Below are positions 5,529 to 21,465 of a stretch of 64,000 nucleotides of DNA, one piece after another. The stretch's first letter is position 1, and each line of letters begins with the position of its first letter. Source of the stretch: Mycolicibacterium gadium (GTDB taxonomy: Bacteria > Actinomycetota > Actinomycetes > Mycobacteriales > Mycobacteriaceae); assembly GCF_010728925.1 (NCBI RefSeq), contig NZ_AP022608.1:3844001-3908000 (forward strand), given 5' to 3'. Below the pieces are notes generated by a model. It did no database searches. It saw only the letters and a list, made by a program, of their open reading frames with translations, and was not told the origin of the DNA. Both the position numbers and the translations under genes were made by a program.

Positions 5529-6904
5529 GCGCTGCACCCGCACTTCCGCATGGCCGCGGCCAGCGTGTCCAGGGCGACGCGGCCCGTCGGCCCGGCGTCG
5601 TTGGAGATGAAGGCGAAGGTGAGCACCCGTCCACTGGCGTCGGTGATGATGCCCGCCAACGAGTTGGTGCCCGTCAGCGATCCGGTCTTGGCCCGTAGGA
5701 AACCGGCGGCCGACCGGCCCGCATCGGTGTCGAGATAGCGGTTGGACAGTGTGCCGCTGCCTCCCGCGATCGGCAGCGTTTCGACCAGCGGCCGCAGCCT
5801 GGGTTCGGCGCTGCCCGCGGCCGCGTTCACGACCTCGTCGAGCGTCTCCGCGGTCAGCCGGTCGTCGACGGACAGCCCGCTGGAGTCGAAGAGCCTGGCG
5901 TTGGTGGTGTCGATCTTGGCGTCGTCGAGTTCACCGAGCACCGCCTGCACCGCACCGGCGAAACTCTGCGGAAGCCCGACCTCGGCGGCGATCTCCCGGC
6001 CGATCGACTCGGCCATCACGTTGTCCGATGCGTTCATCATGTCGCGCAGGCGATCGATGAGCGGGGGCGACTGTACCGACCCGATCTCCTGGCCGCCGCG
6101 CGCGGCGCCCGGCACCACCGTCACCTTCCTGGGGTCGACGTCCAGCGCCGCCGCCAACGCGCGACCGGCATCCAGCGCCGGCGTCTTGGAGCGGGTGGAA
6201 TCGACGCTCACCGGTTGGGTGCGGCCACCGTCGAGCATCACCGATTCCATCGGCGCGATGTCTCCGCCGTCGATGTCCAACGGATCCCAGCCGGGCGCCA
6301 TCGTCGGGCCGGTGTAGGCGCTCACGTCCACCTGCACCGAGGTGGGCTCGATTCCTGCGTCCTCCACCTGTTCGGCCAGATCGCTGATGCGCGCGGCATC
6401 GCGATACCAGGTCTCCTCGTCCGGGGCGGCGGCGGACAGCGTCTGGTCACCGCCGCCTTTCAAAACGACGACGCCGACCTTGTCGGTACTGAAGACGCGG
6501 GTGATCAGCCGGTCGTCGCGGTCGAGAGCGAGCAGCGCCGCAGCGGCCGTCAGCGTCTTGTTGGTCGACGCGGGCTGCATCGGCACGTCGGCGCCCTGTG
6601 CCCACAATTCGGCGCCGGTGATCGCATCGCTGATGCGGCCGGTGAACTTGCCCAGGTTCGGATCGGCCAGCGCGGGCGCGAGCACAGCGGCCAGCCGGTC
6701 GGGGGTCGGCTTGGGGGCCGAATCGGCGACGGGCACGATGCCCGGGTTCGCGGTCGCCGCCGCCGGCGTCGGCCTGACAGCCGCCGCGTCGGGTGAACCC
6801 CCGCCGCTCAGCAGGGCCGACACCGCAACGACGACGGCGACAAGTACCAGCACCGCCGCGGCGATCAGCGCGTGGGTGGACCGCCTCCACGTGGTTGGCC
6901 GCAT
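5525..6904 (-). CDS. dacB: D-alanyl-D-alanine carboxypeptidase, S13/PBP4 class
   Basis: Penicillin-binding protein that trims the terminal D-Ala of peptidoglycan stem peptides outside the membrane. An N-terminal signal/anchor helix (ALIAAAVLVLVAVVVAVSALL) is followed by a Pro/Ala-rich linker. The three active-site motifs are present: STNK in PASTNKTLTAA (SxxK), SDN in ASDNVMAES (SxN) and KTG in RAKTGSLTGTNSLAG. The length of 459 aa is typical for mycobacterial DacB (Rv3627c). The gene is first in the minus-strand run; the divergent ppa starts 145 bases away. Confidence 0.94.
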   Translation of the reverse strand: MRPTTWRRSTHALIAAAVLVLVAVVVAVSALLSGGGSPDAAAVRPTPAAATANPGIVPVADSAPKPTPDRLAAVLAPALADPNLGKFTGRISDAITGAELWAQGADVPMQPASTNKTLTAAAALLALDRDDRLITRVFSTDKVGVVVLKGGGDQTLSAAAPDEETWYRDAARISDLAEQVEDAGIEPTSVQVDVSAYTGPTMAPGWDPLDIDGGDIAPMESVMLDGGRTQPVSVDSTRSKTPALDAGRALAAALDVDPRKVTVVPGAARGGQEIGSVQSPPLIDRLRDMMNASDNVMAESIGREIAAEVGLPQSFAGAVQAVLGELDDAKIDTTNARLFDSSGLSVDDRLTAETLDEVVNAAAGSAEPRLRPLVETLPIAGGSGTLSNRYLDTDAGRSAAGFLRAKTGSLTGTNSLAGIITDASGRVLTFAFISNDAGPTGRVALDTLAAAMRKCGCSA

Positions 6905-7049
6905 AGCTCAGGGTATCCGCTGGCCCCGATCAAGCCCGCCGGCGGCGTGACGGCGTGCGTCGTGCCTCCCCGAGTAGGTGGCGAGAATCCTGGGCGGTTT
7001 AGGGTGATGCCGTCCCCAATACCGCAGCACAGGGCAGGAAGGCGCCGCC

Positions 7050-7538
7050 GTGGAGTTCGACGTAGTCATCGAGATCCCGAAGGGTTCGCGCAACAAGTAC
7101 GAAGTGGACCACGACTCCGGGCGGGTGAAGCTCGATCGCTACCTGTACACCTCGATGGCCTACCCGGCCGATTACGGCTTCTTCGAGAACACGCTCGGCG
7201 AGGACGGCGATCCGCTGGACGCGCTGGTGTTGCTGCCGGAGTCGGTGTTTCCGGGCTGCATCGTCGAGGCGCGGCCGGTCGCGATGTTCCAGATGACCGA
7301 CGAGGCCGGCGGCGACGACAAGCTGCTGTGTGTGCCCGCCGGCGACGGCCGCTGGGACCACATCCAGGATCTCGAAGACGTGCCCGCATACGAACTCGAC
7401 GCGATCAAGCACTTCTTCGTGCACTACAAGGACCTCGAGCCGGGCAAGTTCGTCAAGGCCGCCGACTGGGTGGGACGCGAAAAGGCCGAGGCCGAACTGA
7501 AGGCCTCGGTCGAGCGGTTCAAGACCGCCGGTCACTGA
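7050..7538 (+). CDS. ppa: Inorganic pyrophosphatase, family I
   Basis: Soluble hexameric Mg2+-dependent enzyme that hydrolyses pyrophosphate and so pulls biosynthetic reactions forward. The 162 aa protein starts [20 protein letters not shown] and has the family signature [12 protein letters not shown] with its catalytic Asp residues, plus the [17 protein letters not shown] block. The start is GTG with a ribosome-binding site AGGAAGG seven bases upstream. It is divergent from dacB, as in M. tuberculosis (Rv3627c/Rv3628). Confidence 0.96.
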
Positions 7539-7606
7539 TATTTTTCACCGCCGTAACACGCGGTAACCCGGGCGTACCCTGCGCCTCCGATGATGACGCT
7601 GTGTTG

Positions 7607-8122
7607 ATGCATCAGGGGATCGGCCTGGAGGCGTTCAACGCCATGCCGATGCGGCGCGCGGTGCATGCCATCTACGAGTGCTGCTACAGCGTGCCGCTGG
7701 CAGCGGATTTGTGCCGTGGTCGGCCATTTGCCAACCACGACGAACTCTTCCGGTCGGCCGACGCGCTGCTGTTCGGGCTCTCCGAGGAGTCGATCGACAC
7801 GATCCTGCAGGCCTACCCCGACATCGGACGCAGGCCGGGCAGCGAGAAGTCAGCGGCCGAGCAGTGCGCCATCTGGTGCGATCAGCCCGAGGTGATGGCC
7901 CAGCTCGGAGAGGCCTCGGAACGCTACCTGGCGCACTTCGGCTTCGGCTTCATCATGTTCGTCAACGGATACACCGCGCAGGACGTGCTGTCGACGATGT
8001 CGGACCGGCTGCACAACGACATCGAGACCGAACGCAAGGTCGTGCGCAACGAACTCGCCCGCATCAACCGCACACGTCTCGAGCGCATGCTGGGCCCCGA
8101 GGGCGGCTACGACAACTGGTGA
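7607..8122 (+). CDS. OHCU decarboxylase-like protein (UraD fold), altered catalytic motif
   Basis: This 171 aa protein resembles 2-oxo-4-hydroxy-4-carboxy-5-ureidoimidazoline decarboxylase, the last step of uric acid to S-allantoin. Family landmarks are seen: a Cys-rich helix (AIYECCYSVPLAADL), RPFANHDELFRSADALLFGL, a PDIG block, the SAAEQ helix, and a long C-terminal amphipathic helix (FVNGYTAQDVLSTMSDRL). The proposed catalytic His of the usual H-P-[RD]-[IL]-G motif is Tyr here (AYPDIG), while the Glu of SAAEQ is kept. No other purine-degradation gene is nearby. Start chosen at ATG 7607 (GTG 7601 is possible). Enzyme activity is doubtful. Confidence 0.7.
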   Translation: MHQGIGLEAFNAMPMRRAVHAIYECCYSVPLAADLCRGRPFANHDELFRSADALLFGLSEESIDTILQAYPDIGRRPGSEKSAAEQCAIWCDQPEVMAQLGEASERYLAHFGFGFIMFVNGYTAQDVLSTMSDRLHNDIETERKVVRNELARINRTRLERMLGPEGGYDNW

Positions 8123-10216: not shown

Positions 10217-10242
10217 ATCGCCGGCCGGTCGGGCCTGGCGAT
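10217..10242. terminator. Hairpin between convergent genes
   Basis: ATCGCCGGCC at 10217 pairs with GGCCTGGCGAT ending at 10242 (one bulged base, short loop). It lies in the 31-base gap between the converging serine hydrolase and terC genes. There is no U-tract, so it may act as a transcript 3'-end stabiliser or as a non-canonical bidirectional terminator. Confidence 0.4.
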
Positions 10243-11294
10243 CAGTGCGAATCCACCGATTTCTCGGTTGCCTCCGGCGCGGTGCCCTTTCCGGTATCGC
10301 CGGTCTCGGCCACGCCGTCGCTGCCGTTCTTCACGTCGTGCACGCGCGTCTTGTACAGGCTGGCGACGGTCGTGATGAGCAGCGTCACGACGATCACGCC
10401 GAGGCTCGCCAACGTCGGGATCTCGGGCACCGGCACATGCTCACCACCGTTGATGAACGGCAGCTCGTTCTCGTGCAGCGCATGCAGGATCAGCTTCACA
10501 CCGATGAACGCGAGGATGATGGCCAGGCCCTGCGACAGGTAGACCAGCCGCTTCAACAGGTCGCCGAGTAGGAAGTACAGCTGACGCAGACCCATCAGCG
10601 CGAACACGTTCGCCGTGAACACCAGGTACGGCTCGCGCGTCAGGCCGTAGATCGCGGGGATCGAGTCCAGCGCGAAGAGCAGGTCGGTGGTGCCGAGAGC
10701 AACGATCACCAGGAACATCGGCGTCATCAGTCGCTTGCCGTTGTCCTTGATCCACATCTTCAGGCCGTGCCACTCGTCGGTCAGGCTCAGATGCTTACGT
10801 GCGAAGCGCACCACGAAGTTCTCGGCGTCGTCGTCGTGGTCGGTGTCGCGGACGAGCGTGATCGCGGTGTAGACCAGGAAAGCGCCGAATGCGTAGAAGA
10901 TCCACGAGAACTGGTTGATGGCCACCGCGCCGAGCGCGATGAAGATGCCGCGGAAGATCAGCGCCAGAATGATGCCGACCAGCAGTGCCTGCTGCTGGTA
11001 CTTCCTCGGCACGTTGAAGCTCGCCATGATGATCAAGAAGATGAACAGGTTGTCCACCGACAGGCTGTACTCGGTGAGCCAGCCCGTGAAGAACTCCAGG
11101 CCGAACTGGCTGCCGTGGAAGAACCACACCCAGATACCGAAGCCCACCGCCAGCGTGATGTAGATGGTGAGGTAAGTCGCGGTTTCGCGCCTCGACGGTT
11201 CGTGCGGCCGGCGCCCGATGATGATGACGTCGAACAGCAGAATCGCGACCGTCACGCCCAGCGTGATGATCCACTCGAGTTGAGAAACGTTCAC
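10242..11294 (-). CDS. TerC/Alx-family membrane protein, probable Mn2+ exporter
   Basis: Integral membrane protein (about 350 aa from the GTG at 11294) with the TerC fold: seven or more helices such as WIITLGVTVAILLFDVIII, LTIYITLAVGFGIWVWFF and LVIVALGTTDLLFALDSIPA. The conserved acidic membrane motifs YSLSVDNLFIFLII and DLLFALDSIPAIYG are the proposed metal site of this family. The C-terminus is a hydrophilic acidic tail. I reject longer starts up to 11471 because those codons form a riboswitch. A GGAGG ribosome-binding site lies 4 bases before GTG 11294. The Mn2+-sensing leader argues for a role in manganese detoxification, or metallation of exported proteins. Confidence 0.88.
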   Translation of the reverse strand: MNVSQLEWIITLGVTVAILLFDVIIIGRRPHEPSRRETATYLTIYITLAVGFGIWVWFFHGSQFGLEFFTGWLTEYSLSVDNLFIFLIIMASFNVPRKYQQQALLVGIILALIFRGIFIALGAVAINQFSWIFYAFGAFLVYTAITLVRDTDHDDDAENFVVRFARKHLSLTDEWHGLKMWIKDNGKRLMTPMFLVIVALGTTDLLFALDSIPAIYGLTREPYLVFTANVFALMGLRQLYFLLGDLLKRLVYLSQGLAIILAFIGVKLILHALHENELPFINGGEHVPVPEIPTLASLGVIVVTLLITTVASLYKTRVHDVKNGSDGVAETGDTGKGTAPEATEKSVDSH

Positions 11295-11342
11295 AAAACC
11301 TCCGGTCGCCGCGGCGGACAGCGGATGCAGCCCGAATAACGC

Positions 11343-11444
11343 CGGAGGTCTCTTCCACCGCATGTCGTACGCGGTCCGCAGCACCGGTCGTCCCATGCGG
11401 GTCAACGTGATGACGACGCTGCGGCGAAGGAATACTCCCCTCCG
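11343..11444 (-). promoter_or_regulatory. yybP-ykoY manganese riboswitch in the terC leader
   Basis: Read on the minus strand, helix P1 is CGGAGG (11444-11439) paired with CCUCCG (11348-11343). Directly inside P1 are the conserved GGAGUA (after the GG pair) on the 5' side and AGA on the 3' side, the aptamer core of the yybP-ykoY class. Between them are a GUCAUCACGUUGACC segment and a GUCGUC/GACGAC helix as in the family consensus. The 3' strand of P1 (ACCUCCGG) is complementary over 8 bases to the terC ribosome-binding region CCGGAGGU (11305-11298). When P1 is not formed, this strand can mask the Shine-Dalgarno, which predicts translational activation by Mn2+. Confidence 0.85.
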
Positions 11445-11535
11445 CACGTGATTCTGCCAGGTAACCGCCATTGACCGAAATCGAGGGAATCAAACCCACC
11501 GCGTGCGGCGCGCGTGCGCCGGCCGCACCGGTTAG

Positions 11536-11548: not shown

Positions 11549-14500
11549 GTGACTGGGGATGTTGGGCCCGAGGTACCTCGGCAGTATTTGCTGTCGCGGC
11601 ATGCTCCCGAGCCCAGAACGCTCATCGACATTCTCTATGAGACTGCCGGCCGTCATCCCGATTCGCCCGCCATCGACGACGGCGAAGTGCAGCTCACGTA
11701 TGCCGAGCTGATCTCCGACATCGAAGACAGCGTCGAGTGGCTCGCCGCCCGCGGGATCGGGCGCGGCGACCGCGTCGGTATCCGGATGCCGTCGGGCAGC
11801 TACGCGCTGTATGTGGCGATACTCGCGACGCTGGCCAGCGGTGCCGCCTACGTTCCGGTCGACGCCGACGATCCCGACGAACGGGCGGACCTGGTGTTCA
11901 CCGAGGCCAACGTCGTCGCGATCATCACCGAGGCCGGGCTGATCCGCGCGCAGGGTTCGTCGCGGGGGTGGCGCGCAGCGGCGCCGCTCGGCCGCGACGA
12001 CGCCTGGATCATCTTCACGTCCGGCTCCACCGGCACCCCCAAGGGCGTAGCCGTCACACACCGAAGTGCGGCGGCGTTCGTCGACGCGGAAGCACGAATG
12101 TTCCTGCAGGACAGCCCAATCGGGCCGAAAGATCGGGTGCTCGCCGGGTTGTCGGTGGCCTTCGATGCTTCGTGTGAGGAGATGTGGTTGGCCTGGCGGC
12201 ACGGCGCATGCCTGGTGCCTGCGCCGCGTTCGCTGGTGCGCAGCGGCATGGACCTGGGCCCGTGGCTGGTGTCGCGAGACATCACCGTCGTCTCCACGGT
12301 GCCGACGCTGGCGGCGCTGTGGCCCGCCGAGGCGCTCGAGGCGGTGCGCCTGTTGATCTTCGGTGGCGAGGCCTGCCCGCCGGAGCTGGCCGAGCGGCTC
12401 GCCGTCGAGGGGCGCGAGGTGTGGAACACCTACGGACCCACCGAGGCGACCGTCGTCGCATGTGCCGCGCGGCTGCGCGGTTGGGCTCCGGTGAGCATCG
12501 GGCGGCCGCTCCCGGGTTGGGACCTGGCGGTGGTCGACAAGTCGGGTATTCCGGTGGCTCTCGGCGAGGTCGGCGAACTCGTGATCGGTGGCGTCGGGCT
12601 GGCCCGGTACCTGGACCCGGAGAAGGACGCCGAGAAGTACGCGCCGATGCCCACCCTTGGATGGAGCCGCGCGTACCGCAGCGGCGACCTGGTGCGCCTC
12701 GAAGACGACGGCCTCTACTTCCAGGGGCGCGCCGACGATCAGGTCAAGGTGGGCGGCCGGCGGATCGAGCTTGGCGAGGTCGACTCCGCGCTGGTCCACC
12801 TCCCCGGCGTCAGCGGCGGCGCGGCCGCGGTGCGCCGCACCGCCAGCGGGACCCCGTTACTGGTCGGCTACATCGCGAGCGCCGAGCCCACCTTCGATCT
12901 CGCTGCCGCGCGGGCCACGCTCGCCGGGGCGTTGCCTGCCGCGCTGGTACCGCGGCTGGTGCTCGTCGACGAACTGCCGACGCGGACCTCCGGCAAGGTC
13001 GACCGCGATGCGCTGCCGTGGCCGCCACCCGGTGACCCCGAGGATGCGGACGCACCCGACCTCGGCGGCACGATGGGCTGGGTGGCGGGTCTGTGGCGCG
13101 ATGTCCTGGCCGCCCCCATTGAGGGGCCCGAGGCGGACTTCTTCGCGCTCGGCGGCGGATCTTTGTCGGCCGCCCAGCTGGTGACCGCCCTACGCCAGCG
13201 CTATCCGCAGGTGACCGTGGGCGACCTCTACGACCATCCGCGCCTCGGATCGCTGACCGGGTACCTCGATGAGTTGAAATCGCCACCGCGGGTAGAGACC
13301 CGTGTGGTCGAACCGACGCCGTGGCTATCCCAAGCAGTTCAGGTTGCGCTGACCCTCCCGCTGGCCACGCTTACGGCGCTGCAGTGGGTGGTCTGGCTGG
13401 CATTGGCCAACAACATCGCCGCGGAGTTGAACCTGGTGCCGTGGACGGCGCCCATCGGCTGGTGGTGGATCCTCGCGGGCTTCCTGCTTTTCGTCACACC
13501 GCTGGGCCGGATGGGCATCGCCGTGCTGTTCGCCCGGATGCTGCTGTCGGGGCTGGAACCCGGCACCTACCGTCGAGGTGGGCCGGAGCATCTGCGGGTG
13601 TGGTTCGCCGAGCGTCTCGCGGAGGCGAGCGGTGCGGAGAACCTGGCGGGCGCGCCGTGGCTGGTGTACTACGCGCGCGCGCTCGGAAACAAGGTCGGCA
13701 AGGGGGTCGACCTGCACTCGGCTCCACCGGTGACCGGCATGCTCAAGCTCGGTCACCGCAGTTCGGTAGAACCCGAAGTCGACCTGACGGGTCACTGGAT
13801 CGATGGCGACCAGTTCCACGTCGGCCGGATCAGCATCGGCAACGACGCCACGATCGGCGCCCGCACGACGCTGCACCCGGGCGCGGTCGTCGGCAAGAAC
13901 GCCGATGTCGCACCGGGCTCAGGTGTCGTCGGCAAAGTCAAGAACGGTCAGTATTGGAAGGGCTCACCCGCGGTGAAGTCCGGGAAGGCCCGCCATCCGT
14001 GGCCGGATCATCGGCCACACCGGGCACCGCTGTGGGTGGCGGTCTACGGGGCGACGTCGGTGCTGCTCGGCGCGGTTCCGCTGCTGGCGCTCGCTGTCGG
14101 TCTCGCCGTGATCGGCCACGGTGTCCGCGGCACCGACACTGTGACGGCCGCCATCGCCCCCGCCGCAATGTGGACTCCTGCCGCGACCCTGGCCGCGGTG
14201 CTGACCTATGCGCTGCTGACGATCGTCGGGGTGCGACTGCTCTCCCTGTGGCTCAGCGAGGGTTATCACCCGGTGCGCAGTCGCGTCGGGTGGCAGATAT
14301 GGGCCACCGAACGGCTGATGGATGCGGCGCGCAACTACCTCTTCCCCTTGTATGCCAGCCTGCTGACGCCGTGGTGGCTGCGGATACTCGGCGCGAAAGT
14401 GGGGCGTGGCACCGAGATCTCGACCGCGCTGCTGACGCCGAAGTTCACCGTGGTCGAAGACGGTGCGTTCCTGGCCGACGACACCATGGTCGCGTCGTAC

Positions 14501-15475
14501 GAACTCGGTGGCGGCTGGATACACGTCGCGAAGGCGACCATCGGCAAGCGGGCGTTCCTCGGCAACTCCGGAATCACCCAGCCCGGCCGCAAGGTGCCCG
14601 ACGACGGGTTGGTCGCGGTGCTGTCCGCTGCACCGCATAAGGCCAAGGCCGGATCGTCGTGGCTGGGCAGTCCGCCGGTACGGTTGCGGCGCAAGCCGAC
14701 AGCGGCGGACACGCTGCGCACATTTCACCCGTCGGTGCGACTCAAGATCCTGCGCTCCCTGGTGGAGACGTGCCGGATCGTTCCGCTGATCGTGACGTTC
14801 GCAATCGGCGTCGCCGTGCTGCTGACGCTGCAGTGGCTGGCGGTCACTTTCGGTTGGTCGTGGGCGGCGCTGGCAGGCGGCGTCGTCATGCTGACCGCGG
14901 GTGCAATCGCGGGCGGTATCGCCGTGGTCGCGAAATGGGTTGTGGTAGGCCGTATCCGGGCCATCGAGCATCCGTTGTGGTCCGCATTCGTGTGGCGCAA
15001 CGAGGTATCGGACACCTTCGTCGAGACCGTGGCGGCGCCCTGGTTCGCGCGCGCCGCCACCGGGACCCCCGTGATGAACCTGTGGCTGCGGGCGCTCGGC
15101 GCGTCGATCGGACGCGGCGTGTGGTGCGAGACGTACTGGCTGCCCGAGGCCGATCTGGTCACCCTCGGCAGGGGTTCGACGGTCAACCGCGGCTGCGTGG
15201 TCCAGACGCACCTGTTCCACGACCGCATCATGCGGATGGACACCGTTGTGCTGGAGGAGGGTGCGACGCTTGGTCCGCACTGTGTGGCGCTACCGGCCGC
15301 GCGGATCGGCGCGGGCGCGACGGTCGGCCCGGCCTCGCTGGTGATGCGCGGCGACGAGGTGCCGCCGTCGACCCGCTGGCTGGGCAATCCGATTGCACCG
15401 TGGAACCTGTTCCGTAAGAAGGGCGGTGGCAGCCCTGACCCGGCGCCCAAGAAGCCAGAAGACGCCGCAGCGTGA
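11549..15475 (+). CDS. Pls/PosA-family non-ribosomal peptide synthetase (membrane-bound, A-T-C1-C2-C3)
   Basis: About 1308 aa. The adenylation domain (residues about 25-500) has IIFTSGSTGTPKG near 154, FDASCEEMW at 205, NTYGPTEATVV near 293 and the catalytic Lys483 in TSGKVDRDALPW. The carrier domain has GGGSLSAAQ with pantetheinylated Ser538. Three pairs of membrane helices then alternate with three soluble hexapeptide-repeat domains (HVGRISIGNDATIG; IHVAKATIGKRAFLG; LEEGATLGPHCVALPAARIG). This is the plan of epsilon-poly-lysine synthetase Pls, which joins one amino acid repeatedly without condensation or thioesterase domains. Hand alignment to the GrsA pocket reads D-A-E-S-I-G-T-V-V-K, reminiscent of lysine codes. 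Start is GTG 11549; upstream in-frame TTG 11471 is unlikely. Confidence 0.88.
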   Translation: MTGDVGPEVPRQYLLSRHAPEPRTLIDILYETAGRHPDSPAIDDGEVQLTYAELISDIEDSVEWLAARGIGRGDRVGIRMPSGSYALYVAILATLASGAAYVPVDADDPDERADLVFTEANVVAIITEAGLIRAQGSSRGWRAAAPLGRDDAWIIFTSGSTGTPKGVAVTHRSAAAFVDAEARMFLQDSPIGPKDRVLAGLSVAFDASCEEMWLAWRHGACLVPAPRSLVRSGMDLGPWLVSRDITVVSTVPTLAALWPAEALEAVRLLIFGGEACPPELAERLAVEGREVWNTYGPTEATVVACAARLRGWAPVSIGRPLPGWDLAVVDKSGIPVALGEVGELVIGGVGLARYLDPEKDAEKYAPMPTLGWSRAYRSGDLVRLEDDGLYFQGRADDQVKVGGRRIELGEVDSALVHLPGVSGGAAAVRRTASGTPLLVGYIASAEPTFDLAAARATLAGALPAALVPRLVLVDELPTRTSGKVDRDALPWPPPGDPEDADAPDLGGTMGWVAGLWRDVLAAPIEGPEADFFALGGGSLSAAQLVTALRQRYPQVTVGDLYDHPRLGSLTGYLDELKSPPRVETRVVEPTPWLSQAVQVALTLPLATLTALQWVVWLALANNIAAELNLVPWTAPIGWWWILAGFLLFVTPLGRMGIAVLFARMLLSGLEPGTYRRGGPEHLRVWFAERLAEASGAENLAGAPWLVYYARALGNKVGKGVDLHSAPPVTGMLKLGHRSSVEPEVDLTGHWIDGDQFHVGRISIGNDATIGARTTLHPGAVVGKNADVAPGSGVVGKVKNGQYWKGSPAVKSGKARHPWPDHRPHRAPLWVAVYGATSVLLGAVPLLALAVGLAVIGHGVRGTDTVTAAIAPAAMWTPAATLAAVLTYALLTIVGVRLLSLWLSEGYHPVRSRVGWQIWATERLMDAARNYLFPLYASLLTPWWLRILGAKVGRGTEISTALLTPKFTVVEDGAFLADDTMVASYELGGGWIHVAKATIGKRAFLGNSGITQPGRKVPDDGLVAVLSAAPHKAKAGSSWLGSPPVRLRRKPTAADTLRTFHPSVRLKILRSLVETCRIVPLIVTFAIGVAVLLTLQWLAVTFGWSWAALAGGVVMLTAGAIAGGIAVVAKWVVVGRIRAIEHPLWSAFVWRNEVSDTFVETVAAPWFARAATGTPVMNLWLRALGASIGRGVWCETYWLPEADLVTLGRGSTVNRGCVVQTHLFHDRIMRMDTVVLEEGATLGPHCVALPAARIGAGATVGPASLVMRGDEVPPSTRWLGNPIAPWNLFRKKGGGSPDPAPKKPEDAAA

Positions 15476-16809
15476 CACGGAGCAAGAAGAAGGGAACCCT
15501 CCCCGTCATCGATCCATACATTCCGGCCAACGGCAATTTCGGTTACCGGGTATCGCGATACGAACTCGATCTGGAATACAAGGTGGCGATCAATCGGTTG
15601 ACGGGCACGGCCATCATCACCGCCGCGACGCTCGCCGCCTTGCGCAGTTTCACCCTCGACCTGTCCCATGCGCTTTCGGTGACGAAGGTGACCGTGAACG
15701 GTCGGCGGCCCGCACAGTTCCGGTCGTCTCAGAACAAGCTGCACATCGGGTTGGCGGAGGCCGTGCCCGCCGGGGCGGCGATGTCGATCGTCGTGCGGTA
15801 CGGCGGTTCTCCGCGGCCGATTCGCTCCCATTGGGGCGAGGTGGGTTTCGAGGAACTCACCGAAGGCGTGCTGGTGGCCGGTCAACCGAACGGCGCGGCT
15901 TCCTGGTTTCCCTGCGACGACCACCCCAGCGCGAAGGCGAGCTTCTCGATCCGGATCAGCACCGAGAGTCCGTACTACGCGCTGGCCAACGGCGAGCTGG
16001 TGTCCAAGCGGGCGCGGGCCGGAATGACGACCTGGACCTATGAGCAGGCGGAGCCGACGTCGACGTATCTCATGACGCTGCAGATCGGCGTGTACAGCAG
16101 ACACCGAATGGCCAAGAACGGTGTCCCGATGCACGCCCTCCTGCCGGACCGGTTGCGGCGCAACTTCGATCAGGACTTCGCCGACCAGCCGAAGATGATG
16201 AAACTGTTCGTCAAGCTGTTCGGCCCATACCCGCTGGCGACCGGATACACCGTGGTCATCACCGATGATGACCTCGAGATACCGCTGGAGGCGCAAGGTA
16301 TCTCGATCTTCGGTGCCAATCACTGCGATGGCCGGGGCAGCTCCGAGCGGCTGATTGCACATGAACTGGCCCATCAGTGGTTCGGCAATTCGGTCACCGC
16401 CCAACGGTGGCGGCACATCTGGCTGCACGAGGGCTTCGCCTGCTACGCGGAGTGGTTGTGGTCGGAACACTCGGGCGGCCGCACCGCTGACGAGTGGGCA
16501 CACCACTACTACCAGCGGTTGGCGGATTCGCCCCAGGACCTGCTGCTGGCCGACCCCGGCCCGCGCGACATGTTCGACGATCGCGTGTACAAGCGCGGCG
16601 CCATCACGCTTCATGTGCTGCGCCGGCGCATCGGTGACGACAATTTCTTTGCACTGCTTCGTGATTGGACGGAACGCCACCGGCACGGCACAGCCGTCAC
16701 CGACGACTTCACCGGGCTCGCCTCGAATTACACCAACGACTCCCTGCGGCCCCTGTGGGCTGCGTGGCTCTACTCCACGGAACTGCCTTCCCTGGACTTC
16801 TCCCCGTGA
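15472..16809 (+). CDS. M1-family zinc aminopeptidase
   Basis: A 445 aa metallopeptidase. The zinc site is complete: H297-E-L-A-H301 and E320 in WLHEGFACYAEW, with the usual 18-residue spacing. The exopeptidase-type GxMEN motif is replaced by GANH-like sequence (IPLEAQGISIFGANHCDG), so the N-terminal recognition may differ from classic PepN. The C-terminal ARM-repeat domain is short. There is no signal peptide. The GTG start overlaps the synthetase stop (GTGA), and its own stop overlaps the flippase start, so all three form one operon. In that context it may trim or recycle the amino-acid polymer or protect the cell from it (inference). Confidence 0.87.
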   Translation: MTRSKKKGTLPVIDPYIPANGNFGYRVSRYELDLEYKVAINRLTGTAIITAATLAALRSFTLDLSHALSVTKVTVNGRRPAQFRSSQNKLHIGLAEAVPAGAAMSIVVRYGGSPRPIRSHWGEVGFEELTEGVLVAGQPNGAASWFPCDDHPSAKASFSIRISTESPYYALANGELVSKRARAGMTTWTYEQAEPTSTYLMTLQIGVYSRHRMAKNGVPMHALLPDRLRRNFDQDFADQPKMMKLFVKLFGPYPLATGYTVVITDDDLEIPLEAQGISIFGANHCDGRGSSERLIAHELAHQWFGNSVTAQRWRHIWLHEGFACYAEWLWSEHSGGRTADEWAHHYYQRLADSPQDLLLADPGPRDMFDDRVYKRGAITLHVLRRRIGDDNFFALLRDWTERHRHGTAVTDDFTGLASNYTNDSLRPLWAAWLYSTELPSLDFSP

Positions 16810-18056
16810 CGGATGCGGGCACACCGGGTCCCGTCGCGCGCGCGAGCGTCGCACGGGTCGGCGTGGCGACGGCGCTGTCCGCGCTGTGCGGCTACACGGT
16901 GCTGTATCTGGCCGCCCGTGACCTCGAGCCGAGCGGGTTTGCGGTGTTCGGAGTCTTCTGGGGAGCCTTCGGACTGGTGACCGGCGCAGCGTTCGGCCTG
17001 TTGCAGGAGACGACGAGGGAGGTGCGCTCGGCCGGTTACATCGATATCGCCGATGGACCGCGGACCCACGCGATGAGGGTGGCAGCGATGGTCGGCGTGG
17101 CGGCGGCCGCGTTGATCGCGGTCAGTTCGCCGCTGTGGTCGGCGCATGTGTTCGCCGATGCGCGAATGCTGTCGATCGCGCTGCTAGCCGTCGGCCTCGC
17201 GGGTTTCTGTCTACATGCCACGCTGCTCGGCATGCTGGCGGGGCTGAACCGCTGGACGGCATACGGGTCGTTGATGGTGACCGACGCGGTGCTGCGGGTG
17301 ATCGTGGCCGTCGCAACGTTTCTGGTGGGTTGGGGCCTGGTCGGATATCTGTGGGCCACGGTGGCCGGGGCGATCGCCTGGCTGATCATGTTGATCGTCT
17401 CCCCCGCCACGCGCGATGCGGCCCGGCTGTTGACGCCAGGCGGCACGGTCACGTTCCTGCGCGGCGCGTCACATTCGATCGCTGCCGCGGGGGCGAGTGC
17501 GGTTCTGGTGATGGGCTTTCCGGTCCTGCTCAAGGCGACGTCAGGTGACCTGGGTGCGACGGGTGGCGTTGTCATTCTGGCCGTGACGCTCACCCGCGCA
17601 CCGTTGTTGGTACCCCTGACCGCAATGCAGGGCAATCTGATCGCGCATTTCGTCGACCAGCGCACCGAGCGCATGCAGGCGCTGATGAAACCGGTGGCCG
17701 CGGTGATCGGGCTGGGCCTGCTCGGTGTGGTGGCTGCCGGATTCTTCGGACCATGGCTGCTGCGCAACGCATTCGGCGCCGAGTACCGCGCCGACGGCGC
17801 GCTGCTGGCGTGGCTGACCGCGGCGGCGATCACGATCGCGTTGCTCACCCTGACCGGTGCCGCGACGGTGGCGGCGGCGTTGCACAGAGCGTATTCACTG
17901 GGATGGGTCTCGGCGACGGTCACATCGACGGCGTTGCTGACGCTGCCGTCGGACATCGAGACCCGCACCGTGGTCGCGCTGATGTGTGGGCCGCTCGTGG
18001 GCATCGCGGTGCACCTGAGTGCGCTGGCGCGTGCTCGCACGTCAGTCCTGCCGTGA
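16806..18056 (+). CDS. Polysaccharide/lipid flippase-like membrane protein (MOP superfamily)
   Basis: A 416 aa protein with about 12 predicted helices (e.g. VGVATALSALCGYTVLYLAA, GVAAAALIAVSSPLW, AVIGLGLLGVVAAGFFGPWLL), lacking charged catalytic motifs. Its overall pattern fits Wzx/MurJ-like flippases of the MOP exporter superfamily. The start is a GTG overlapping the aminopeptidase stop (GTGA). Its place in the synthetase-peptidase operon suggests it exports or flips the product or a carrier of it. The substrate is not readable from the sequence. The 3' end overlaps the convergent TetR gene by 15 bases. Confidence 0.75.
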   Translation: MTDAGTPGPVARASVARVGVATALSALCGYTVLYLAARDLEPSGFAVFGVFWGAFGLVTGAAFGLLQETTREVRSAGYIDIADGPRTHAMRVAAMVGVAAAALIAVSSPLWSAHVFADARMLSIALLAVGLAGFCLHATLLGMLAGLNRWTAYGSLMVTDAVLRVIVAVATFLVGWGLVGYLWATVAGAIAWLIMLIVSPATRDAARLLTPGGTVTFLRGASHSIAAAGASAVLVMGFPVLLKATSGDLGATGGVVILAVTLTRAPLLVPLTAMQGNLIAHFVDQRTERMQALMKPVAAVIGLGLLGVVAAGFFGPWLLRNAFGAEYRADGALLAWLTAAAITIALLTLTGAATVAAALHRAYSLGWVSATVTSTALLTLPSDIETRTVVALMCGPLVGIAVHLSALARARTSVLP

Positions 18057-20421: not shown

Positions 20422-20443
20422 GCCGGCGAGCGTACAACAGAAA

Positions 20444-20455
20444 GTAAGTACTCAC
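20444..20455. promoter_or_regulatory. Candidate TetR operator
   Basis: GTAAGTACTCAC is a 12-base palindrome with one mismatched pair, centred on AGTACT. It lies 23 bases upstream of the amidohydrolase start and 33 bases upstream of galE. Its size and place suit a TetR dimer. Confidence 0.45.
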
Positions 20456-20487
20456 AATCTTTTTTCGGCTCTAGACTCGGCTCCAAC

Positions 20488-21465
20488 ATGACGTGGATGG
20501 TGACGGGCGGGGCGGGCTACATCGGGTCACACGTGGTCCGCGCCCTCCAAGACGCCGAGATTCCGGTGGTGGTGCTCGACGACCTTTCGACCGGGCTGGA
20601 GCAGTTCGTACCCGAATCCGTGCCGTTCGTGCGCGGCACCCTGCTGGACGGTGACCTCGTCACGCAGACGCTGCGAGACCACGGCGTCGAGGGCGTCATC
20701 CACATCGCCGGCTACAAGTACGCCGGCGTTTCCGTCCGCCGACCACTGCACACCTACGAGCAGAACGTGTCGGCGATGGTGACGCTGCTCAAGGCGATGG
20801 ACGCCGAGGGCGTCAACAAGATGGTGTTCTCGTCGAGTGCGGCCACCTTCGGCACGCCGGACGTCGACATCGTCACCGAGGACACCCCGACCAGGCCGGA
20901 GTCGCCCTACGGCGAGACCAAGCTGATCGGCGAATGGCTGCTGCGCGACGCCGGGCGGGCCTCCGGTCTCGAGCACACCAGCCTGCGATATTTCAACGTG
21001 GTGGGCTCGGGTTCGACGGAACTGTTCGACGTGAGTCCGCACAACCTGTTCCCGTTGGTCTTCGACATGCTCTACCGGGGCGAGACCCCACAGATCAACG
21101 GCGACGACTATCCGACGCCGGACGGCACGTGTGTGCGCGACTACATCCACGTCTCCGATCTCGCGCTGGCTCACGTTGCCGCCGCGAAACGACTGACGGC
21201 CGGCCAGCCGGTCGAACCCGTCTACAACCTCGGCAGCGGCGACGGGACATCCGTGCGCGAGATCATGACGGCGATTCGGGAAGCGACCGGAATCGAGTTC
21301 GAACCAATCATCAAACCCCGTCGCCCCGGCGATCCGGCCCGCATCGTCGCGGCAGGCGATCTGGCCGCCCGGGACCTGGACTGGAAGATGCGGCATTCGC
21401 TCGGTGAGATGGTGGCGTCCGCGTGGGCGGCGCGCAGCCAAGCCGGCGACACATATCCGGCGTGA
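20488..21465 (+). CDS. galE: UDP-glucose 4-epimerase
   Basis: A 325 aa extended short-chain dehydrogenase that interconverts UDP-glucose and UDP-galactose for cell-wall arabinogalactan. The N-terminal Rossmann motif is MVTGGAGYIGSHVV; the catalytic Tyr/Lys motif is SPYGETKLIGEWLL, with Ser/Thr from VFSSSAATFG. The C-terminal block is VYNLGSGDGTSVREIM. Start at ATG 20488, with a possible -10 TAGACT ten bases upstream. The stop overlaps the GTG of the following membrane protein (GTGA). It corresponds to the galE1 (Rv3634c) position in M. tuberculosis. Confidence 0.93.
   Translation: MTWMVTGGAGYIGSHVVRALQDAEIPVVVLDDLSTGLEQFVPESVPFVRGTLLDGDLVTQTLRDHGVEGVIHIAGYKYAGVSVRRPLHTYEQNVSAMVTLLKAMDAEGVNKMVFSSSAATFGTPDVDIVTEDTPTRPESPYGETKLIGEWLLRDAGRASGLEHTSLRYFNVVGSGSTELFDVSPHNLFPLVFDMLYRGETPQINGDDYPTPDGTCVRDYIHVSDLALAHVAAAKRLTAGQPVEPVYNLGSGDGTSVREIMTAIREATGIEFEPIIKPRRPGDPARIVAAGDLAARDLDWKMRHSLGEMVASAWAARSQAGDTYPA

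What the first reader, a model, noticed from the sequence alone, without database searches (positions are those of the whole stretch)
11549..18056. Pls/PosA-type poly-amino-acid synthetase operon with a lysine-like selectivity code
The 1308-aa synthetase has the A-T-(2 TM-hexapeptide domain)x3 layout of epsilon-poly-lysine synthetase. Hand alignment with the GrsA pocket gives D-A-E-S-I-G-T-V-V-K, which as I remember starts like published lysine codes (DAESIG...). It is followed, with two 4-base GTGA overlaps, by an M1 aminopeptidase and a flippase-like protein. The peptidase and flippase suggest a dedicated make-modify-export system for an isopeptide homopolymer or mono-aminoacyl conjugate in a mycobacterium. 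I know of no characterised mycobacterial product.
Basis: partly seen in the sequence, partly recalled or inferred. Interest (0 to 1): 0.82.

Follow-up and report, generated by a model that had tools for sequence, protein, structure and literature searches.

The report
Mycobacterial polylysine synthetase with degrading peptidase
This mycobacterium carries the gene pair that in other bacteria makes and breaks down epsilon-poly-lysine (a natural food preservative), a pair found in about three quarters of the mycobacterial genomes checked although I found no report of a mycobacterial product, while the neighbouring transporter gene probably belongs to cell-wall sugar decoration instead.

Summary
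11549-15475 (+) encodes an intact 1308-aa epsilon-poly-L-lysine synthetase (Pls): TIGR02353 747 bits (cut-off 423), A domain 65% identical to the solved S. albulus Pls A domain (7WEW), pocket DAESIGTVVK identical to it, and placed in the Pls clade apart from PosA and other relatives. The M1 gene (15472-16809) is a homologue of PldII, the epsilon-PL-degrading peptidase that overlaps pls by 4 bp in S. albulus, so the 'modifier' is most likely a degrader. The pair travels together: 218 of 297 mycobacterial genomes have both, 76 neither, 3 only one. The third gene does not depend on it: its orthologue is in 292 of 297 genomes, including 73 of the 76 without the pair. It has a MATE/Wzx-type (MOP) fold and often precedes ppgS, the gene for lipid-linked GalNAc used on arabinogalactan, whose flippase is reported as unidentified. 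So this is a known kind of operon, unexpectedly widespread in mycobacteria. Worth testing: whether mycobacteria make epsilon-PL (here with a peptidase lacking an export signal, unlike Streptomyces relatives), and whether the third gene is the missing flippase. Product and activities are inferred, not shown.

The parts
11549..15475 (+). Pls: epsilon-poly-L-lysine synthetase (A-T-three membrane-linked tandem domains), 1308 aa
   Evidence: TIGR02353 747 bits; 7WEW 632 bits; tree; 325 of 327 columns invariant in 26 other Pls-clade rows are kept
11576..13030 (+). adenylation domain (residues 10-494); pocket residues 206, 207, 210, 249, 270, 272, 294, 302, 303 and 483 = DAESIGTVVK
13079..13267 (+). 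carrier (T) domain, residues 511-573, GGGSLS with the phosphopantetheine serine
   Evidence: PF00550 E 2e-12; the serine column S538 is invariant
13337..15394 (+). membrane-linked tandem C1-C3 region, residues 597-1282
   Evidence: TIGR02353 stretch; hydrophobic pairs
15472..15475 (+). GTGA start/stop overlap pls-M1, the same length of overlap (4 bp) as reported for pls-pldII in S. albulus
   Evidence: overlap in 55 of 79 related loci
15472..16809 (+). M1-family metallopeptidase, homologue of the epsilon-PL-degrading PldII but without an N-terminal export signal
   Evidence: PF01433/PF17900; downstream of pls in 79 of 80 loci; N-termini
16360..16431 (+). zinc motif HELAH-X18-E, residues 297-320 of the peptidase
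   Evidence: 102 of 102 aligned M1 rows keep HExxH and the E (some rows are the same gene fetched twice)
16806..18056 (+). MOP-superfamily (MATE/Wzx-fold) membrane protein; neighbour, probably not part of the pls system
   Evidence: AF2 pLDDT 90.3; Foldseek/VIA matches to MATE and WzxE; near-core distribution
10242..11471 (-). TerC/Alx-family gene; left boundary. In 2 of 4 fetched genomes without the pair, TerC lies directly beside the MOP gene
   Evidence: L147 and L148 yes, L144 and L145 no TerC match nearby
20440..21465 (+). galE, the next sugar gene after the MOP gene; directly after it in relatives such as L003 (context of the third gene)

Best explanation
The first two genes are a mycobacterial pls-pldII-type operon. 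[quoted passage not shown] The translationally coupled M1 metallopeptidase hydrolyses the polymer. Because it has no export signal, it most likely acts on the cytosolic side, as self-protection, chain-length control or lysine recycling. The third gene is a separate MOP flippase of a cell-envelope sugar-decoration locus. Shown here: architecture, code identity, phylogeny, coupling, linked presence and absence, lack of a signal, independence of the third gene. Inferred: polymer identity, length, fate and peptidase activity.
For: Best solved-structure match is the S. albulus epsilon-PL synthetase A domain (632 bits), 311 of 477 = 65.2% identical, pocket 10 of 10 identical. Code DAESIGTVVK in 135 of 142 rows that include the window, 7WEW and some repeats of the same gene; 5 rows are cut by contig ends and 2 rows are one exceptional gene. 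In an A-domain tree with 7 outgroups the Pls clade holds the window with support 100/100, apart from PosA, a PDAB-type enzyme with dat and ask beside it, and five others. 325 of 327 columns invariant in 26 other Pls-clade rows are kept. M1 gene downstream in 79 of 80 loci (the 80th ends with its contig), 4-base overlap in 55 of 79. In 297 genus genomes: both 218, Pls only 2 (G182; G257, whose pls match runs to within 6 bases of a contig end), M1 only 1 (G125, 63% complete, with a partial pls match), neither 76. Published: S. albulus pldII overlaps pls by 4 bp and degrades epsilon-PL (passages); a Corynebacterium Pls 51% identical to that of Streptomyces, in an operon with a peptidase, made epsilon-PL of 26-35 residues in S. 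coelicolor (section read).
Against: No mycobacterial polymer turned up in the papers I could search. C. variabile itself made no detectable epsilon-PL in culture, and neither did its gene expressed in C. glutamicum, so carrying the gene does not show production. The PldII-like protein lacks the N-terminal signal seen in S. albulus-type relatives, so the exported-antibiotic model does not transfer unchanged. P0001 is only about 52% identical over its full length to Streptomyces Pls of the S. albulus group. Deletion of Pld and PldII is reported not to change epsilon-PL yield or length in Streptomyces (review passage), while a CRISPRi study reports longer chains, so even the peptidase's known role is disputed. 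The S. albulus Pls C-terminal half and PldII themselves were not in hand; two Streptomyces relatives stood in for them.
Confidence: 0.8

Rival explanations
1. Pls makes short lysyl or oligolysyl groups that stay bound to an envelope lipid or polysaccharide, not a free secreted polymer.
For: The pair is kept in 218 of 297 genomes, one per species, more like an envelope function than an optional antibiotic. In Mycolicibacterium, Williamsia and Speluncibacter loci it lies beside an arabinogalactan-decoration locus. The peptidase has no export signal.
Against: The enzyme is intact and nested among Pls proteins, and a published Corynebacterium relative makes 26-35-mers. In 9 compared mycobacterial genomes pls lies 164-227 kb from that locus.
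Confidence: 0.12
2. The three genes are one dedicated make-modify-export system, with the MOP protein exporting the polymer.
For: The M1 and MOP genes also overlap by GTGA in the window. Of 76 related loci with room after M1, 30 have the MOP gene within 134 bases, including Williamsia and Speluncibacter. In G182, where M1 is gone, the MOP gene directly follows the eroded pls.
Against: MOP orthologue in 292 of 297 genomes, 73 of 76 lacking pls and M1. It lies next to ppgS in 26 of 26 pls-lacking genomes whose MOP and ppgS rows are both listed in the capped tables, and in 9 of 9 chosen genomes where pls is 164-227 kb away. No MOP match beside pls-M1 in the Streptomyces loci L132 and L133 or the Kitasatospora locus L131.
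Confidence: 0.05
3. The operon is silent or vestigial in this species.
For: C. variabile Pls was not detected in whole-cell proteomics and no polymer was found. One mycobacterial genome (G182) carries an eroded Pls without the peptidase, so decay does happen.
Against: The window gene keeps 325 of 327 otherwise invariant columns and the zinc motif is intact.
Confidence: 0.06
4. Another diamino acid (ornithine, diaminobutyrate) is polymerised.
For: The wider family does this; PosA uses ornithine (abstract and sections).
Against: The code is identical to Pls and differs from PosA DMEHNGTVSK and PDAB-type DFECLSAVTK. Ala at code position 2 is the published lysine-size determinant. No dat, ask or other diamino-acid supply gene was recognised among the flanking genes scanned (only part of the window).
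Confidence: 0.04

Closest known systems
Streptomyces albulus pls-pldII (epsilon-poly-L-lysine synthetase and type II degrading enzyme)
   Same: A-T-C1-C2-C3 layout, identical 10-residue code, downstream peptidase with a 4-bp overlap
   Different: A domain 65% identical; the peptidase here has no N-terminal signal, while Streptomyces relatives (L132, L133) have an N-terminal hydrophobic stretch preceded by a double arginine and a paper places PldII outside the membrane
Corynebacterium variabile Pls with operon peptidase (PMC8117764, results section read)
   Same: same order (recalled), peptidase operon, Pls clade; product proven by heterologous expression
   Different: sequence not in hand; the main text does not mention mycobacteria
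Nocardia Pls homologue nfa3790 (PMC4035055, passages)
   Same: Pls homologue in a related genus, 55% to S. albulus Pls
   Different: product predicted only
PosA, delta-poly-L-ornithine synthetase of Acinetobacter baumannii (PMC10522769, abstract and four sections)
   Same: same TIGR02353-type architecture
   Different: 30% identical, code DMEHNGTVSK, no M1 peptidase annotated beside the copy fetched
MOP-superfamily transporters (MATE, WzxE, MurJ) for the third gene
   Different: about 10-20% identity, no Pfam or NCBIfam family matched

Membership tests
epsilon-poly-L-lysine synthetase (Pls) | A and T domains followed by three tandem domains linked by six transmembrane segments | tested here: met
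   TIGR02353 747 bits; three pairs of hydrophobic segments
epsilon-poly-L-lysine synthetase (Pls) | lysine pocket code of characterised Pls | tested here: met
   DAESIGTVVK, 10 of 10 identical to 7WEW; mapping validated on PosA
epsilon-poly-L-lysine synthetase (Pls) | groups with Pls rather than PosA, PDAB or other members | tested here: met
   40-row A-domain tree, split 100/100; the outgroup branches are long and the tool warns about joins among them
epsilon-poly-L-lysine synthetase (Pls) | polymerises L-lysine through the epsilon-amine | not testable with these tools
   needs enzyme assay and mass spectrometry
PldII, epsilon-PL-degrading aminopeptidase | M1 metallopeptidase coupled to pls | tested here: met
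   PF01433, HELAH-X18-E, GTGA overlap
PldII, epsilon-PL-degrading aminopeptidase | located outside the membrane (as reported for S. albulus) | tested here: not met
   no hydrophobic N-terminal stretch (best 15-residue mean 0.28); 91 of 94 homologue N-termini likewise. It is therefore called PldII-like; a hydropathy test cannot exclude non-classical export
PldII, epsilon-PL-degrading aminopeptidase | hydrolyses epsilon-PL | not testable with these tools
   needs enzyme assay
MOP-superfamily flippase (third gene) | MATE/Wzx-type fold | tested here: met
MOP-superfamily flippase (third gene) | flips a lipid-linked sugar or exports a solute | not testable with these tools
   substrate unknown
   292 of 297 genomes, 73 of 76 without pls and M1

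The most novel reading that the evidence does not exclude
In mycobacteria and their relatives Pls and its cytosolic PldII-like partner are not an antibiotic system but a standing envelope or storage cycle: epsilon-oligolysine is made at the membrane as a cationic envelope component (beside the locus that adds cationic galactosamine to arabinogalactan) or as a lysine/nitrogen reserve, and the cytosolic peptidase returns it to lysine.
Probability: 0.13. Interest if true: 0.85.

Novelty: new member of a known kind. Interest (0 to 1): 0.47.

Why it matters
A synthetase for a cationic antimicrobial polymer, complete with its degrading partner, sits in about three quarters of the sampled mycobacterial genomes and both genes are missing together in nearly all the rest, yet I found no product on record in the open-access papers searched. 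If epsilon-PL is made it would be an overlooked mycobacterial natural product; if it is not secreted, the role of Pls outside Streptomyces needs rethinking. The third gene, freed from the polymer story, becomes a testable candidate for the flippase of lipid-linked GalNAc in arabinogalactan decoration, a step that a 2022 paper calls unidentified.

Tried and rejected
Dedicated export flippase: rejected on distribution. Other pocket specificities: rejected on code and tree. Fold of P0003 from a shallow alignment of near-identical sequences (A1) failed, pLDDT 37.6; a broader alignment (A2) gave 90.3. Pfam at E up to 10 and a sequence profile against the PDB gave only weak, unrelated matches for P0003. 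ppgS cannot by itself define the third gene's role: the window's own genome has no ppgS over cut-off, 71 of 74 genomes without a ppgS match at E 1e-80 keep the MOP gene, and of 39 MOP rows (the window included, one gene counted twice) 23 have ppgS within 110 bases, 3 within 1.0-1.6 kb and 13 none in the stretch held. So GalNAc-lipid cannot be its only substrate, or another enzyme stands in there. A reading of the eroded Pls of G182 as a C-domain kept for another job was not supported: its C-terminal region is no better kept than its A domain (A 71%, C 59% to the window). The 2x2 counts were read off the per-genome rows by hand and agree with the tool's tallies (219 over cut-off plus G175, whose pls is split over two contigs; 219 for M1); the Fisher values ignore relatedness and are not used as probabilities. 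The MOP-ppgS gaps come from coordinates typed off capped tables: all 26 pls-lacking genomes with both rows listed, and 9 genomes chosen because pls is remote. Rows left out's count: of 32 Pls-clade rows other than the window, 26 were used; L028 (near-identical), L134 (eroded), 7WEW, L095 and L097 (partial) and L003 were left out, the last for no strong reason. In one search the overlap count was too low because of a bug in my script; one search replaces it.
Full report
What is there. Window 11549-18056 holds three plus-strand genes with two GTGA overlaps, in a 5.96-Mb single-contig genome. The closest named records that encode a relative are Mycolicibacterium and Mycobacterium, and a Mycobacteriaceae metagenome bin (L028) encodes a 98% identical protein.

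Gene 1 is an epsilon-poly-L-lysine synthetase by each sequence test I ran. It scores 747 bits against NCBI's Pls/PosA model (cut-off 423), and its best solved relative is the A domain of S. albulus Pls, 7WEW (632 bits; 311 of 477 = 65.2% identical). The ten pocket residues are identical to that enzyme. The column mapping was checked on an A. baumannii PosA, where it returns the published DMEHNGTVSK. In a 40-row A-domain tree, the 32 rows with DAESIGTVVK plus one eroded gene form one side of a 100/100 branch; PosA, a PDAB-type enzyme flanked by dat and ask, and five others form the other side (the outgroup branches are long). The window protein keeps 325 of the 327 columns that are invariant in 26 other Pls-clade rows, so it is not decaying. 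Hydrophobic pairs at about 599-662, 828-903 and 1070-1134 match the published three-domain membrane layout (layout).

Gene 2 is the PldII-like peptidase. It is an M1 protein with HELAH-X18-E. In S. albulus, pldII overlaps pls by 4 bp in one operon and its product is the main epsilon-PL degrader (passages of PMC4361855 and PMC9223678). A Streptomyces plasmid with an A domain 82% identical to 7WEW has the same 4-base overlap with an 'M1 family metallopeptidase', which is 41% identical to the window's. Among 80 loci found with the window's Pls (the best 80 of 586 confirmed stretches, themselves a capped list), 79 have the M1 gene downstream and the 80th ends with its contig. Of the 79, 55 have the 4-base overlap, while in Tsukamurella and Williamsia the gene lies 0.6-2.2 kb away. 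One difference matters: S. albulus-type relatives (L132, L133) have a hydrophobic N-terminus after two arginines, whereas the window's M1 and 91 of 94 homologue N-termini tested have none (a simple hydropathy test, starts chosen by rule, some genes counted twice). The mycobacterial enzyme is therefore probably cytosolic.

The pair is a unit. In 297 genomes of the genus, Pls (TIGR02353 at E below 1e-60) is in 220 and the M1 protein (E at most 1e-60) in 219: both in 218, one alone in 3, neither in 76. Of the three discordant genomes, G257's pls match runs to within 6 bases of a contig end, G125 is 63% complete and has a partial pls match, and G182 looks real: there A-domain core motifs and code residues are lost, and the peptidase is gone too. 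Of four pls-lacking genomes whose MOP region I fetched, two (L147, L148) have TerC directly beside the third gene, so pls and the M1 gene are missing together at the window's site; in the other two (L144, L145) no TerC match lies in the stretch. Outside mycobacteria the pair is not universal: plasmid copies of pls in M. avium and R. opacus have no M1 gene beside them. Of 394 genomes across the class, 95 have a match to the Pls A domain at E 1e-100.

Gene 3 is a neighbour. A confident model (pLDDT 90.3) has the MATE/Wzx fold, so 'flippase-like' was right. But the orthologue is in 292 of 297 genomes, including 73 of the 76 without pls and M1. In 26 of 26 pls-lacking genomes with both rows listed in capped tables it is followed within 32-88 bases by ppgS (polyprenyl-phospho-GalNAc synthase; NCBIfam NF058614), and the same holds (46-89 bases) in 9 of 9 chosen genomes where pls is 164-227 kb away. 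DUF2304, the Rv3632-type partner by recall and position, follows ppgS. In the window's own type ppgS is missing and galE is the next sugar gene. [quoted passage not shown] this protein is a candidate. Against that: 71 of 74 genomes without a ppgS match still keep it, and 13 of 39 MOP rows have no ppgS in the stretch held, so it must have another or wider substrate there.

How it most likely works. Lysine is adenylated, loaded on the carrier serine and polymerised at the membrane; the coupled peptidase removes polymer on the cytosolic side. The polymer's length, location and use are not shown. A close precedent both supports and cautions: the C. variabile gene made epsilon-PL of 26-35 residues in S. 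coelicolor, but none was seen in C. variabile or in C. glutamicum (section read).

Known or new. The operon type is known in Streptomyces and Corynebacterium, and Pls is annotated in Nocardia; NCBI-derived annotation already names mycobacterial plasmid copies 'Pls/PosA family'. What I did not find in print is any mycobacterial product or a survey showing how common the pair is in mycobacteria (paper searches; open-access PMC only, listings and passages). I therefore call it a new member of a known kind.

Noticed in passing
window 16806-18056; L144-L149; genomes: The MOP-fold protein directly precedes ppgS in 26 of 26 pls-lacking genomes compared and is a candidate for the unidentified flippase of polyprenyl-phosphate-GalNAc; yet 71 of 74 genomes without a ppgS match keep it.
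   Followed up: partly
L130 (M. avium plasmid pMAH135) and H1-H5: M. avium and M. intracellulare plasmids carry a pls (74% identical). In L130, the one read, it has the lysine code, sits among large NRPS genes next to a PLP-dependent cysteine-synthase-type gene, and has no M1 peptidase beside it.
   Followed up: partly
L134 (genome G182): A full-length but eroded Pls: A-domain core motifs and the Glu and Lys of the code are lost and the M1 gene is absent, while the MOP gene and galE remain next to it.
   Followed up: partly
L141 (Rhodococcus opacus B4 plasmid pROB01): A plasmid pls without the M1 gene, after a response regulator and a MarR gene and near phoU and pstB.
   Followed up: no
L157 (Streptomyces sp. 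NBC_00648 plasmid), L158, L160, L155: Other Pls/PosA codes: DSECYGGVTK (the code of the Bdellovibrionales enzyme that showed modest arginine activity in PMC10522769), DLEDIGTVVK and DLEDIGSVVK, DFEYLGTVTK.
   Followed up: no
L047 (Williamsia) and L055 (Speluncibacter): Order Pls-M1-MOP-about 1 kb-PpgS-DUF2304 also outside mycobacteria, so the closeness of the polylysine pair to the arabinogalactan-decoration locus is old.
   Followed up: partly
control genome Corynebacterium glutamicum: The only one of 14 control genomes with TIGR02353 over its cut-off, and also with ppgS over cut-off; a laboratory species that may carry a Pls-type gene of its own.
   Followed up: no
window 6872-8122 (+): The UraD (OHCU decarboxylase) frame has about 245 N-terminal residues without a family match, either an extension or a wrong start.
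   Followed up: no
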